From positions 1 through 52,764 of the forward strand of contig SGZH01000005.1 of assembly GCA_004214175.1 (NCBI GenBank): a stretch of 52,764 bases of DNA. The letters run 5' to 3'. This DNA comes from Flavobacteriales bacterium. Its GTDB lineage: Bacteria > Bacteroidota > Bacteroidia > Flavobacteriales > Flavobacteriaceae. A program made the position numbers and the translations under genes. Below the pieces are notes generated by a model. It ran no database searches. It saw nothing but the letters and a program-made list of their open reading frames with translations, and was not told the DNA's origin. This document shows, piece after piece, positions 2,488 to 33,783 of the stretch (its first letter is position 1; the number at the start of each line of letters is the position of its first letter).

Positions 2488-3636
2488 ATGAGAAAAATCT
2501 ATTTTGATAATGCTGCGACAACTCAGGTCAGAAAAGAGGTAGTAGATAAGGTAGCAGAAATATTAAGTACCGAATTCGGTAATCCTTCCTCAACTCATTC
2601 TATCGGAAGATCTTCTAAATCTATTCTTGAAAATTGTAGAAAAGAAATTGCTGCTCATTTTAAAGTGACTGCAGCAGAAATAATTTTTACTTCAGGAGGA
2701 ACAGAAGCAGATAATTTAATAATAAATAGTTGTGTAAGAGATTTAAAAGTAGAGCGAATAATAACAAGTAAAATTGAACATCATGCTGTTTTACATACAA
2801 TACAGGATATAAGTAGTGAACTTAATATTCAAATAGATTATGTTGAATTAGGCCAAAATGGGATGGTCAATTATGATCATTTAGAAAATCTTCTCCAAAA
2901 ATCTCCATCAAAAACTTTAGTTAGTTTAATGCACGTTAATAATGAAATTGGGAATATTTTAGATATCAATAAAGTAGCAACTATTTGTAAGCATAATAAT
3001 GCTTTGTTTCATAGTGATACTGTTCAATCTGTAGGTCATTATAGTTTAGATTTTTCAAAAATACCAATTGATTTTGCAGCTGTTGCAGCACATAAATTTC
3101 ATGGTCCAAAAGGGATAGGATTTGCATTTGTCAGAAAAAATTCAGGCTTAAAATCCTCTATAAAAGGAGGTGAACAAGAGCGTGGTTTAAGAGCAGGTAC
3201 GGAGGCTGTTTATGCTATAGCAGGCCTTAATGAAGCTTTGAAATTATCTTATCAACACCTTACAGAAGAAAGAAACTACATTAAAACGATAAAAAATTAT
3301 TTTAAGGATACTTTATTAAAAGAAATTCCAGATGCTAAACTAAATGGTTGCTGTGGTGATGATGATTTTAGCACCTACACATTACTAAATGTTTTATTAC
3401 CTATACCGGCAGAAAAAGCGTCCTTGTTATTATTTCAGCTTGATTTAAAAGGAATCGCTTGCTCTAAAGGTTCTGCTTGCCAGAGTGGAAGTTTAAGTGG
3501 ATCACACGTTTTGTCAGAAATTCTATCAAAAGAAGATATGCTAAAACCATCGATACGTTTTTCTTTCTCAACCTACAATACTATCGAAGAAGTAGATTTT
3601 GTAATTAAAACGTTGAAAGAATTAATAGATTCTTAA
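2488..3636 (+). CDS. Cysteine desulfurase (NifS/IscS-like)
   Basis: MRKIYFDNAATTQVR start, HKFHGPKGIGF PLP-lysine motif, GSACQSGS active-site Cys loop. ATG at 2488 is preferred over the TTG at 2479. Confidence 0.9.
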   Translation: MRKIYFDNAATTQVRKEVVDKVAEILSTEFGNPSSTHSIGRSSKSILENCRKEIAAHFKVTAAEIIFTSGGTEADNLIINSCVRDLKVERIITSKIEHHAVLHTIQDISSELNIQIDYVELGQNGMVNYDHLENLLQKSPSKTLVSLMHVNNEIGNILDINKVATICKHNNALFHSDTVQSVGHYSLDFSKIPIDFAAVAAHKFHGPKGIGFAFVRKNSGLKSSIKGGEQERGLRAGTEAVYAIAGLNEALKLSYQHLTEERNYIKTIKNYFKDTLLKEIPDAKLNGCCGDDDFSTYTLLNVLLPIPAEKASLLLFQLDLKGIACSKGSACQSGSLSGSHVLSEILSKEDMLKPSIRFSFSTYNTIEEVDFVIKTLKELIDS

Positions 3637-14734: not shown

Positions 14735-15136
14735 CTATTCTTTCTTGAAGTCTACAGATAAGGAATTAACGCAATAACGTTGACCAGTTTTAGTCGGACC
14801 ATCGTTAAAAACATGTCCTAGATGACCACCACAATTATTACAAACGATTTCTGTTCGGATCATTCCATGACTTTTATCTAGAACGTTTCTGATGCTTCCT
14901 TTAATGGCGTCATCGAAAGATGGCCAACCACAACCACTGTCAAATTTTTGTTCGCTTTGAAAAAGAGGGTTTTCACATGCTTTACATTGATAAGAGCCAT
15001 TTTCAAAATGAAAATTATATTTACCTGAGAAGGGAGGTTCTGTACCTTTTTCTCTAAGAATACGATAGGATTCCTCAGAAAGATTTTCTTTCCAGTATTT
15101 ATCTGTCGCTTGTTCTGGGAATATATTATTTTTCAT
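14735..15136 (-). CDS. msrB: Peptide-methionine (R)-S-oxide reductase MsrB, apparently cytoplasmic
   Basis: GTEPPFSGKYNFHFENGSYQCKACENPLF...GCGWPSF...CNNCGGHLGHVFNDGPTKTGQRYCVNSLSVDF. Confidence 0.93.
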   Translation of the reverse strand: MKNNIFPEQATDKYWKENLSEESYRILREKGTEPPFSGKYNFHFENGSYQCKACENPLFQSEQKFDSGCGWPSFDDAIKGSIRNVLDKSHGMIRTEIVCNNCGGHLGHVFNDGPTKTGQRYCVNSLSVDFKKE

Positions 15137-15617
15137 TTGATGCTTTAGTAGGTGTAAATTTTAATGAGATTCCATTTATACAATGCCTTTTTCCGGTTGT
15201 ATTAGTAGGTCCATCATTAAAAACATGTCCTAAATGTCCACCGCAATTTGCACAGTGTTCTTCGACTCTTGTGTATCCCAAATCATTATCTGTAGAATAA
15301 GCTACATTTCCTTTGATTTCACGATCAAAACTGGGCCACCCTGATCCACTATCATATTGGTAATCACTTTCAAAAAGGGCTGTACCGCACGCTTTGCAAG
15401 AATAAACTCCCTCTTTATCATTAAAATTAAACTTACTTGAATATCGTGGTTCCGTACCTTTTTCACGTAAAATATAGTATTCATCCTTACTTAATGAGTT
15501 TTTCCATTCGGCTTCCGATTTAGTTATTTTAAAAGTCACCTTTTCCTTATTTGATTGTGCTTTGCTTTGACAACTCATCACTAAAACAGCTATTGATATA
15601 ATAATTATCTTTTTCAT
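15126..15617 (-). CDS. msrB: Peptide-methionine (R)-S-oxide reductase MsrB, lipoprotein-like
   Basis: MKKIIIISIAVLVMSCQSKAQ lipobox; SGSGWPSF...CANCGGHLGHVFNDGPTNTTGKRHCINGISLKF. Confidence 0.92.
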   Translation of the reverse strand: MKKIIIISIAVLVMSCQSKAQSNKEKVTFKITKSEAEWKNSLSKDEYYILREKGTEPRYSSKFNFNDKEGVYSCKACGTALFESDYQYDSGSGWPSFDREIKGNVAYSTDNDLGYTRVEEHCANCGGHLGHVFNDGPTNTTGKRHCINGISLKFTPTKASNEK

Positions 15618-29326: not shown

Positions 29327-31609
29327 ATGAAAAAATATTACTTTTTACTTGTTTTATTAATCAGTATAAAATCATGGGCCCAATGTGATATATCTCTTTT
29401 AAACTCAGATTCCTGGACAGTAGTTTATACTGATAGTGAATGGTCTGCAGACTATTTAGGTGAATTTGCGATTGATGGAGACCCTTCTTCTATCTGGCAT
29501 ACTGGTAGTGGAGTACCTTATCCTCACGAGATACAAGTTGATTTAGGGGCTGAGTACCCGGTTTCTGGTATTGGTATTTTGCCGCGACAGAGTCCTACAA
29601 ATGCAAAAGTTAAAGATCATGAGATTTTTTTAAGTAACGATGGTATTTCTTGGTTAGTTCAGGGTGGGGGAACTTTTAATTATATAGATGATAGTGATAC
29701 AGCTTTAAAACAGTCTACTTTTCATGCGGTTGATGCAAGATATCTAAAAATTATTGGACTTTCAGGTTACGCTGATGATTATATGGCTATAGCAGAATTA
29801 GAAGTTTACCAAGATTTACTTTGTTCACCTACTGGTCAAAATAATCAACTAATCACTTTTGAGGAGATATCTGATAAAGGGACTGAGGATGATCCTTTTG
29901 AGGTGATTGCATCTTCAAATTACGGATTAGACCTTACTTTTGAAATTGTATCAGGTCCAGCATCAGTTAATAACAATATAATTACATTAACCGGAGCTCC
30001 AGGAGTTGTTGAGTTAAAAGCTACACAAGCTGGGAATGAGGATTATTATCCATCAGAAAATTCTACTTATTTTGAAGTTATTGATCTGTCTTTGTATTAT
30101 CCGGAGGTAACAACTTCATTCATAGATGATTTTCCGCTAGAAATGCCCTCTTTGATGGCATATCCTATTTATATAAATTCTTCAATAATTATATCAGATG
30201 ACTTAATCGATATTCAACAAGTGGATTTACTTATTGGAGGAGAGACTTTTACTGCTGAAGAACAAAATGGTTTTTATTACCATCTTTGGACTCCCACTTC
30301 TTATGGAAGTCATACAATAGATATAAAAGCAATTGCTAGCAATGGAAATGAGTCGATAATTACAAGAAACATTGATGTTACAGATTCTTATGCTACTCAA
30401 ACAGTTGGAACTTTAGAGGATATAGTTATCGAATTTGGAGGAGAAAATAGTCGTTGGTATTACGGAACCTACAACCTACCTCAATTTGTTGGAGTTTATA
30501 ACAATTTAAATGCTTTTTTAGATGTAGAATGCCCTAACATTTCAGGTGGTTGCGATGATTGGGACCGATGGGCACATATCGATATAAAAGCTCCAGACGG
30601 AAACTGGGTACAGTTGATCCGATATATAACACCCTATGGGGTTGGATGCGATCACGAATTAGATGTAACGGATTATTCTTCTTTATTACAAGGCCAAGTA
30701 GAATTTAGAGTTTTTATTGATACCTGGGGAACAGGAGGTTGGCAACTAACTTTAGATATCGATTATACTGTAGGAATACCAACTTTTCCTTACAGCACAG
30801 TTACAGAAACTTGGGATGGAAGTTATAGTTTTGGTAATCCAGCGAATTTACAGCCAGTAGAAACTTATACTGCTGGTCTTACAGATGAGGTTGAGGCATC
30901 TTTTTTAAGATTATCTAATACGGGTCACGGTTGGGGAAGTAATAATACAGGAAATGCTGCAGAATTTTTTAGTGCCTATCATTATATTGATGTAGATAGT
31001 GAACAAATTTTTATTCAACACTTATGGAACTATTGCAACCCTAATCCCGACAATTGTACAGGGCAACAAGGTACATGGCAGTATAACAGGGCAGGCTGGT
31101 GCCCTGGGGCTATTGCACCTCCACATATTTACGATTTAACACCTTATATCGGAACCTCTATTGATATAGACTATCGTTTTCATCCTACTTATGAAGATTT
31201 TTGTCATCCAAATAATCCGGAATGTATTTCTGGTGTAACCTGCTCAGATTGTAATGATGGTTATAACCCTGTATATTACGTGGATGGTCAAATAATTAAC
31301 TATAGTAGTCAGCCCATTGTTTATGGAAATTATTTAGGAATTAATTCTACTAATGAATTAATTTTTAATGTTTCTGTCTATCCAAATCCCTCAAACGGGT
31401 TTTTTAATATTCATACTGATAGTTTTGATGGTAATACAAGGGTTACTGTGTATTCTATAGATGGAAGTTTAATCAAATCTTATTATTTTAATTCTAGCTC
31501 AGAGATGTCTAATACAAAGTTTGATTTATCCAATCTTTCTTCCGGCATTTATTTTGTTAATATTGATAATAATAAAGGTACTGGAACTAAGAAAATAATA
31601 ATTGATTAA
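29327..31609 (+). CDS. Secreted PNGase F-like protein with discoidin-like, Ig-like and T9SS C-terminal domains
   Basis: Signal peptide; F5/8-type DGDPSSIWHTGSG..PHEIQVDLG; PNGase F-like CDDWDRWAHIDIKAPDGNWVQLIRYITPY...ELDVTDYSSLL...FIDTW...NAAEFF...YNRAGWCPG; C-terminal SVYPNPSNGFFNI...SLIKSYYF...LSSGIYFVNI. Confidence 0.85.
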   Translation: MKKYYFLLVLLISIKSWAQCDISLLNSDSWTVVYTDSEWSADYLGEFAIDGDPSSIWHTGSGVPYPHEIQVDLGAEYPVSGIGILPRQSPTNAKVKDHEIFLSNDGISWLVQGGGTFNYIDDSDTALKQSTFHAVDARYLKIIGLSGYADDYMAIAELEVYQDLLCSPTGQNNQLITFEEISDKGTEDDPFEVIASSNYGLDLTFEIVSGPASVNNNIITLTGAPGVVELKATQAGNEDYYPSENSTYFEVIDLSLYYPEVTTSFIDDFPLEMPSLMAYPIYINSSIIISDDLIDIQQVDLLIGGETFTAEEQNGFYYHLWTPTSYGSHTIDIKAIASNGNESIITRNIDVTDSYATQTVGTLEDIVIEFGGENSRWYYGTYNLPQFVGVYNNLNAFLDVECPNISGGCDDWDRWAHIDIKAPDGNWVQLIRYITPYGVGCDHELDVTDYSSLLQGQVEFRVFIDTWGTGGWQLTLDIDYTVGIPTFPYSTVTETWDGSYSFGNPANLQPVETYTAGLTDEVEASFLRLSNTGHGWGSNNTGNAAEFFSAYHYIDVDSEQIFIQHLWNYCNPNPDNCTGQQGTWQYNRAGWCPGAIAPPHIYDLTPYIGTSIDIDYRFHPTYEDFCHPNNPECISGVTCSDCNDGYNPVYYVDGQIINYSSQPIVYGNYLGINSTNELIFNVSVYPNPSNGFFNIHTDSFDGNTRVTVYSIDGSLIKSYYFNSSSEMSNTKFDLSNLSSGIYFVNIDNNKGTGTKKIIID

Positions 31610-31668: not shown

Positions 31669-33783
31669 ATGAAAATTAATTTTTGGATTGAATCAATTGC
31701 AACATTTGTCTATAATAAAGTTTTTTTAAGCTTATTGATATTCATAATTGGTTTTTTTACTTCTTATTCTCAACAAACCGAAAAAGTTGATTTCATAAAT
31801 ATTAATGCAACGGTACAACCAATATTTACTGAAAAAAAAGTTAAAGCTACTGCAACTTATACTTTTAAAATTTTAAAAAACTGCGATTCAATTTATTTGG
31901 ATGCACCCAATATTATTTTATTGAGTACTAAAAATTTTAATTCAGAAATTAAAGTGATATCAAAAAATAAAAAAATATGGTTATTCGCTGATTTTAAATT
32001 AAATAAGACATACAAGATTTCATTTAGTTATGAGGCTATTCCAAAAAAAGCCTTATACTTTTTTAAAAATCAGATATGGACTCAAGGTCAAGGTAAATAC
32101 ACCTCTAACTGGCTACCTAGTATCAATGATATGAATGATAAAATTTGGTTTCATATAAGTTATATAATTCCTTCTGAAAAAAAAATGGTAGCAAATGGTG
32201 TTTTAAAATCAATTACTAAAAAAGAAAAATTTAGTATTTGGGAATATAAAATGACTAACCCAATATCTAGTTATTTGGTGGCATTTGCAGTTGGAGATTT
32301 TTCAAAAAAAATCATAAAATCAAGCAGTAAAATTCCAATTGAATTATATTATCCAACCAATGACTCTCTTTATTTTGAAACTACCTATCGATATTCCGAG
32401 AAAATTTTTAATTTTTTAGAAAATGAAATTGGTTTTAAATATCCATGGGCAAATTACAAACAAGTTCCTCTACATGATTTTATGTACGCTGGAATGGAAA
32501 ATACTTCTGCTACTTTTTTTTCCGATGATTTTATAGTCGATTCAATAGGGTTTAATGATAGAAATTACATCAATGTTAATGCTCATGAATTAGCACATCA
32601 ATGGTTTGGTAATTTAGTTACCGAACAATCGAGTTCAGATCATTGGTTACATGAGGGTTTTGCTAGTTATTTTGCGTTATTGGCGGAAAAAGAAATTTTT
32701 GGAGAAGATTATTATTATTGGGAATTATATCAATCTGCTGAACAACTAAGATCTCTGAGTGAAGAAGGAAAAGGAGAGGCTTTAAATGATCCACAAGGAA
32801 GCTCAATAACTTTTTATGAAAAGGGTGCTTGGGCATTACATATTCTTAGAGAAAAAGTTGGCGATAAGGTATTTAAAAAAGGAATAAAAAATTATTTGTT
32901 TAAGTATCAATTTCAAAATGTAAAAATTAAGGATTTTCTGATCGAAATAGAGCTAGTTTATAGAATGAATTTAAATGATTATGAAAATGATTGGATAAGC
33001 CAAACTGAATTTCAATATGAACAAGTATACATTTCCTTAATGAAATCGAAATTTATGAGGGATTACTTTAATCTTTTATCTCTTAGACCACTCTCTATTT
33101 CTTCGAAAATAATTGATTTTGAAAAAGCATTAAATTCTTCAAATGATTTTCTTGGGCAAGAAGTTGTGTATCAACTTCAAAATGAACCGATTTCAAAAAC
33201 ATTGCCATTTTATAAAAAGGCTTTCCAAACAAATAACATAAAAATTAGACAAGCTATTGCACTGTCTATGGATAAAATACCAACGGAATTAAAAACAGAT
33301 TATGAAAGTCTGTTAAATGATAAGTCTTATATAACACAAGAAATTGCTTTCGGGAATTTATGCGCAAACTTTTATACTGAACGACCTAAATATTTAAATA
33401 AAATCGATAAAGTTATTGGTTTTAGAGATAATAATGTAAGACAGTTCTGGTTGTTTATGGCTATAATTACAAAGAAGTATAAACCAGAAAAAAAAGATTT
33501 ATATATCAACGAACTAAAGCAATATTCGTCTTCAAATTATGGATATGCAGTTAGAAAGAAAGCATTTGAGTTTATTGATTATTTAAACCTATGGGATCAT
33601 GAAACTATTTATAATTTGATCAATGCAAGTCAGCACCACTATTGGAAATTTAGAGCTTCCTCTAGAAAAATATTAAATAAATTATTAACAAATGAAACCT
33701 TTAAAAAACAAATAATTTTATTAAGAAATACATTGGATGATAAAAGCCAAAATTTTTTAAGTAAAGTGCTGGAAGAAAATTAA
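31669..33783 (+). CDS. M1 family zinc metallopeptidase (aminopeptidase)
   Basis: GMENTSATFF and VNAHELAHQWFGNLVTE...WLHEGFASYFA (GAMEN-like and HEXXH-E motifs); N-terminal signal peptide. Confidence 0.92.
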   Translation: MKINFWIESIATFVYNKVFLSLLIFIIGFFTSYSQQTEKVDFININATVQPIFTEKKVKATATYTFKILKNCDSIYLDAPNIILLSTKNFNSEIKVISKNKKIWLFADFKLNKTYKISFSYEAIPKKALYFFKNQIWTQGQGKYTSNWLPSINDMNDKIWFHISYIIPSEKKMVANGVLKSITKKEKFSIWEYKMTNPISSYLVAFAVGDFSKKIIKSSSKIPIELYYPTNDSLYFETTYRYSEKIFNFLENEIGFKYPWANYKQVPLHDFMYAGMENTSATFFSDDFIVDSIGFNDRNYINVNAHELAHQWFGNLVTEQSSSDHWLHEGFASYFALLAEKEIFGEDYYYWELYQSAEQLRSLSEEGKGEALNDPQGSSITFYEKGAWALHILREKVGDKVFKKGIKNYLFKYQFQNVKIKDFLIEIELVYRMNLNDYENDWISQTEFQYEQVYISLMKSKFMRDYFNLLSLRPLSISSKIIDFEKALNSSNDFLGQEVVYQLQNEPISKTLPFYKKAFQTNNIKIRQAIALSMDKIPTELKTDYESLLNDKSYITQEIAFGNLCANFYTERPKYLNKIDKVIGFRDNNVRQFWLFMAIITKKYKPEKKDLYINELKQYSSSNYGYAVRKKAFEFIDYLNLWDHETIYNLINASQHHYWKFRASSRKILNKLLTNETFKKQIILLRNTLDDKSQNFLSKVLEEN

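What the first reader, a model, noticed from the sequence alone, without database searches (positions are those of the whole stretch)
29327..31609. Secreted PNGase F-like protein with discoidin-like and T9SS modules, and an apparent E118-to-D change
The 760-aa product combines a discoidin-like N-terminal domain, an Ig-like spacer, a PNGase F-type two-domain core and a Por-secretion-like C-terminus. Aligned by eye to the PNGase F sequence I recall, D60 (DWDR; codon 30563-30565) and E206 (AAEFF; codon 30962-30964) are kept, but E118 (YTETW) is Asp (FIDTW; codon 30719-30721). It could be an N-glycan-releasing enzyme for eukaryotic or algal glycoproteins with altered specificity, or a homolog with a different function.
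Basis: partly seen in the sequence, partly recalled or inferred. Interest (0 to 1): 0.68.

Follow-up and report, generated by a model that had tools for sequence, protein, structure and literature searches.

The report
Ordinary secreted PNGase F-family glycan-removing enzyme

Summary
The 760-aa ORF at 29327-31609 (+) holds a signal peptide, a discoidin/CBM32 module, two Ig-like spacers, a PNGase F two-domain core and a T9SS type A tail. The core matches PNGase F at E 1e-32 by sequence and TM 0.85 by model. D60 and E206 are kept as D413 and E546; E118 is D465, all at the stated codons. E118-to-D is not a departure: in 98 aligned sequences D60 and E206 are essentially invariant, whereas position 118 is D in 40, G in 22, E in 12, and all 20 rows of this protein's own supported clade have D. 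Group 1 Bacteroides PNGases also carry Asp there, and BF0811 acts like PNGase F, without activity on plant N-glycans (PMC9522356). The same domain order recurs across Bacteroidota. The gene sits between recG and an M1 peptidase, and was lost in sister species, once with a visible deletion scar. Verdict: new member of a known family; low interest.

The parts
29327..31609 (+). Whole ORF, 760 aa: secreted modular PNGase F-family protein
29327..29383 (+). Sec signal peptide (about residues 1-19, MKKYYFLLVLLISIKSWAQ)
   Evidence: read from sequence; hydrophobic helix 2-15 in model; boundary inferred
29435..29800 (+). Discoidin/F5-8C module, CBM32-like (residues 37-158), with H58, R87, N92 matching the canonical galactose-binding His-Arg-Asn
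   Evidence: residue roles from PMC5291390
29852..30085 (+). Ig-like spacer 1 (about residues 176-253)
   Evidence: strand pattern in model; boundaries approximate
30098..30385 (+). Ig-like spacer 2 (about residues 258-353)
   Evidence: strand pattern in model; Big_7 in 5 of 56 relatives
30398..31306 (+). PNGase F-type two-domain catalytic core (about residues 358-660)
30563..30565 (+). D413 = PNGase F catalytic D60 (in DWDR, with W412 and R414)
30719..30721 (+). D465 at the PNGase F E118 position (FIDTW); clade default
30926..30928 (+). H534 at the PNGase F W191 position; His is the family norm
30962..30964 (+). E546 = PNGase F catalytic E206 (AAEFF)
31088..31099 (+). R588 and W591 = PNGase F R248 and W251 (RAGWCPG)
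31202..31270 (+). Cys-rich insertion (residues 626-648), absent from PNGase F-like L012, with conserved Cys in most relatives
   Evidence: function unknown
31376..31603 (+). T9SS type A C-terminal sorting domain (residues 684-759)
31669..33783 (+). Downstream M1-family aminopeptidase, 59 bp after the PNGase stop; neighbour in all close relatives

Best explanation
The protein is a functional peptide:N-glycosidase of the PNGase F family. It is exported by Sec and then by the type IX system through its C-terminal tail, to the cell surface or medium. There it hydrolyses the amide bond between Asn and the first GlcNAc of N-glycans on eukaryotic (probably algal, animal or dissolved marine) glycoproteins. 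D413 and E546 do the catalytic work of D60 and E206, and D465 takes the E118 place near C3 of the first GlcNAc. The CBM32-like discoidin module probably tethers the enzyme to galacto-configured sugars, and the Ig-like modules are spacers. Freed glycan and peptide feed nutrition. Shown: family membership, residue identities, architecture, clade-wide conservation, gene loss in sisters. Inferred: activity, location, substrate preference (not core-alpha-1,3-fucosylated, probably high-mannose), and role in feeding.
For: PNGase F matches at E about 1e-32 and 6e-72 with a profile. AlphaFold2 model mean pLDDT 88.6; best PDB match 1png, TM 0.85 by target, rmsd 2.8 A, 27% identity, and the other PNGases (4r4z, 7zgn, 9lwg, 3ks7, 4qhb) are also in the list. 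W59, D60, R61, E206, R248, W251 kept, and the Asp/Glu pair is also essential in zebrafish Ngly2 (PMC12753239). Asp at 118 throughout the clade and in active BF0811. T9SS tail, with 28 such tails in the genome. GH20 in the same genome and in G001 and G016, GH92 in relatives G001, G016 and G017, no GH29 fucosidase in five genomes, which fits use of unfucosylated or high-mannose N-glycans.
Against: No member of this exact clade is known to me to have been assayed. PNGase F S155/I156 fall in a gap here, and six other family members were modelled with an open space under the chitobiose (PMC12381499), so exclusion of core alpha-1,3-fucose is not certain. GH92 was not found in the window's own assembly (69.6% complete). 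No N-glycan operon surrounds the gene. Inter-domain arrangement is uncertain (pTM 0.69).
Confidence: 0.85

Rival explanations
1. The Asp at position 118 opens the pocket enough that this enzyme accepts core alpha-1,3-fucosylated (plant, algal or invertebrate-type) N-glycans, unlike PNGase F.
For: Asp is one methylene shorter than Glu; PNGase F S155/I156 are in a gap here; some family members with other active-site loops accept alpha-1,3-fucose.
Against: BF0811 has Asp and does not release plant N-glycans. The acceptors EMTypeII and group 2 Bacteroides enzymes have Gly, and Gly is what most of the sister LamG-type clade carries. No GH29 fucosidase in five relatives.
Confidence: 0.2
2. A non-catalytic PNGase F-fold protein that binds N-glycans or has another function.
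For: Modular architecture with a binding module; one relative (L047) has Gln at E206, so loss of catalysis may occur in the wider group.
Against: D60, E206, R61, R248 and W251 equivalents are all kept here and in essentially all relatives.
Confidence: 0.05
3. The PNGase and the downstream M1 aminopeptidase form a dedicated glycopeptide-degrading operon.
For: Same strand, 59 bp apart, order recG-PNGase-M1 kept in the window and 12 related loci including Aequorivita.
Against: The M1 gene is next to recG in sister genomes without the PNGase (G007, G009-G012, G018), so it does not depend on it; more distant PNGase loci lack the M1 neighbour.
Confidence: 0.2

Closest known systems
PNGase F (Elizabethkingia meningoseptica; 1PNF, 1PGS, 3PMS)
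   Same: Two-jelly-roll core; D60, E206, W59, R61, W120, R248 and W251 equivalents; 27-32% identity
   Different: E118 is Asp, W191 is His, Cys-rich insertion at 626-648, added discoidin, Ig-like and T9SS modules
BF0811 PNGase, group 1 (Bacteroides fragilis; 3KS7) and BVU_2763 (4QHB)
   Same: YIDTW/FIDTW: Asp at the E118 position and His at W191; BF0811 has PNGase F-like activity
   Different: Far in sequence (15% by structure); no discoidin or T9SS modules are described for it
PNGase F-II / group 2 (4R4X; B035DRAFT_03341, 7ZGN)
   Same: Same fold and catalytic mechanism class
   Different: Gly at the E118 position and a fucose pocket; N-terminal bowl-like domain instead of discoidin
PNGaseL and PNGaseDo (PMC12381499)
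   Same: Bacteroidota PNGase F-family enzymes with T9SS tails; mostly orphan genes
   Different: Accessory modules differ; their residue at position 118 was not checked here
Orthologues in Aequorivita, FRAM18_bin221, MED-G119
   Same: 68-95% core identity, Asp, T9SS tail, recG-PNGase-M1 order
   Different: Aequorivita and some others lack the discoidin module

Membership tests
PNGase F family (PF09112 + PF09113) | Matches to both N- and C-domain models over cut-off | tested here: met
   PF09113 33.5 bits (cut-off 25), PF09112 23.1 bits (cut-off 22.4)
PNGase F family (PF09112 + PF09113) | Two side-by-side jelly-roll fold | tested here: met
   Model matches 1png, TM 0.85 by target length, rmsd 2.8 A
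PNGase F family (PF09112 + PF09113) | Catalytic D60 and E206 | tested here: met
   D413 and E546
PNGase F family (PF09112 + PF09113) | Amidase activity on N-glycoproteins | not testable with these tools
   needs an enzyme assay
Type I (group 1) PNGase | Acidic residue (E or D) at position 118 | tested here: met
   D465; Asp in group 1 per PMC9522356
Type I (group 1) PNGase | Does not release core alpha-1,3-fucosylated glycans | not testable with these tools
   needs an enzyme assay
Type II (group 2) PNGase | Gly at position 118 | tested here: not met
   Asp here
Type IX secretion cargo, type A | C-terminal sorting domain TIGR04183/PF18962 plus Sec signal peptide | tested here: met
   signal peptide read by eye from the sequence
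CBM32, galacto-specific | His, Arg and Asn of the canonical galactose site, plus stacking aromatic | tested here: inconclusive
   H58, R87, N92 correspond to His1671, Arg1702, Asn1707; stacking aromatic not identified

The most novel reading that the evidence does not exclude
This clade (discoidin or LamG, Ig-like, PNGase, T9SS, with a Cys-rich insertion at 626-648) is a surface PNGase group adapted to marine glycoproteins. In it, paralogues with Asp (this type) and Gly (LamG type) at position 118, both present in G005 and G017, divide unfucosylated and core-alpha-1,3-fucosylated N-glycans between them, as groups 1 and 2 do in Bacteroides.
Probability: 0.2. Interest if true: 0.4.

Novelty: new member of a known kind. 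Interest (0 to 1): 0.17.

Why it matters
If active, it is one more PNGase for glycobiology and a sign that marine flavobacteria strip N-glycans from proteins outside the cell. The useful negative result is that Asp at the E118 position should not be read as a specificity change, since it is the norm in this large Bacteroidota clade and in a characterised enzyme. The more informative contrast is Asp against Gly between paralogues in one genus.

Tried and rejected
E118-to-D as a unique change: rejected, it is the clade default and known from Bacteroides. W191-to-H as a departure: rejected, His is the family norm (PMC12381499). PNGase-M1 pair as an exclusive functional operon: weakened, M1 stays next to recG where the PNGase is missing. 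Phage or viral origin: no relative in viral contigs. The single Glu at D60 in the 98-row table is an artefact of the BF0811 fragment, which begins after that residue. One paper search for catalytic residue names gave only an unrelated paper, and two for marine or discoidin PNGases gave nothing useful. BF0811's place in the tree is unreliable (fragment, very long branch).

Full report
Observation. The window carries one intact ORF at 29327-31609 (+), 760 aa, ATG start. Pfam finds F5_F8_type_C at residues 37-158, N-glycanase_N at 428-480, N-glycanase_C at 520-616 and Por_Secre_tail at 684-759, all over their cut-offs; NCBIfam confirms a T9SS type A tail. The three best PDB matches to the core are PNGase F entries at E about 1e-32, 6e-72 with a profile of relatives. 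The alignment to PNGase F has no gap around FIDTW/YTETW, and D413, D465 and E546 sit at D60, E118 and E206.

Structure. Foldseek against the PDB returns PNGase F first (1png, TM 0.85 by target, rmsd 2.8 A), with PNGase F-II, the B. massiliensis enzyme, zebrafish Ngly2, BF0811 and BVU_2763 also in the list, and CBM32 modules for the N-terminal part. Residue-level superposition was not printed, so the position of D465 rests on sequence alignment within a matching fold.

Is the Asp special? I aligned the core with relatives from the window's genus, family and order, 80 loci from named genomes, PNGase F and a BF0811 fragment. In 98 rows W59, D60 and E206 are essentially invariant, but position 118 is D 40, G 22, E 12, S 6, Q 4, others. 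The tree needs at least 28 changes at that column, and the 20-row supported clade that holds the window protein is all Asp. Among 44 sequences with the [DE]xW motif, 39 have Asp. The literature says the same: group 1 Bacteroides PNGases have Asp in place of E118, and BF0811 removed complex and high-mannose but not plant N-glycans, very like PNGase F (PMC9522356). [quoted passage not shown] So the Asp is ordinary and argues mildly for type I behaviour.

Architecture. The T9SS tail is found in 55 of 56 aligned relatives and F5/8C in 25; 16 have a LamG module instead, and the Gly-type L009 is one of these. Aequorivita orthologues lack the discoidin module, so it is an exchangeable accessory. It keeps H58, R87 and N92, matching the His-Arg-Asn trio of canonical galactose-binding CBM32 modules (PMC5291390); the stacking aromatic was not identified. 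A Cys-rich insertion at 626-648 is absent from the PNGase F-like L012 and kept in most relatives; its role is unknown.

Neighbourhood and history. The gene lies between recG (-) and an M1 peptidase (+) in the window and in 12 related loci, including Aequorivita. In sister genomes without it, recG and M1 are adjacent. In G018 the flanks are 87-89% identical to the window, while about 1.95 kb (window 29484-31436) is missing and decayed pieces of the first 50 and last 56 residues remain; G007 keeps a possible trace of a spacer. Since Aequorivita has the same order, the simplest reading is an old gene repeatedly lost. G005 and G017 carry both an Asp-type and a LamG/Gly-type copy. The rest of the window is mostly housekeeping genes with no N-glycan locus; orphan PNGase genes are usual (PMC12381499). 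GH20 is in the same assembly, GH92 in close relatives, GH29 in none of five.

Mechanism. The best reading is a surface or released PNGase that cleaves GlcNAc-Asn with D413 and E546, tethered by a CBM32-like module, feeding on N-glycoproteins. Family, residues and architecture are shown; activity, location and substrate are inferred. Substrate range regarding core alpha-1,3-fucose remains open, because the PNGase F S155/I156 residues have no counterpart in the alignment and other family members have an open site.

Verdict. New member of a known kind, low interest.

Noticed in passing
L112 (G018:C6:91000-96500), about 2750-3015: Deletion scar of the PNGase gene in a close sister species: first ~50 and last ~56 codons joined and decayed, flanks 87-89% identical. 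recG in the same contig is also frame-broken, which may be natural or an assembly fault.
   Followed up: yes
L047, core (NAAQFFE): A relative (Flavobacteriaceae MAG AB_MB149_2) has Gln at the catalytic E206 position with the rest of the site kept; may be a natural inactive homologue or a sequence error.
   Followed up: no
L118, L119 (G005, G017): Second PNGase paralogue with a LamG-like module, next to uracil-DNA glycosylase- and nucleoside-phosphorylase-like genes (names by eye), in genomes that also carry the Asp type; its residue at 118 was read only in the close homologue L010 (G013), where it is Gly.
   Followed up: partly
31202-31270: Cys-rich insertion with conserved cysteines late in the C-terminal jelly roll, shared by most of the Asp- and Gly-type relatives and absent from PNGase F-like L012; role unknown.
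   Followed up: partly
L077: Two PNGase F-family genes in tandem on one contig, the second with a divergent active-site region (EEWDTN, FPAKS).
   Followed up: no
14735-15617: Two adjacent SelR (methionine sulfoxide reductase B) genes that overlap by a few bases.
   Followed up: no
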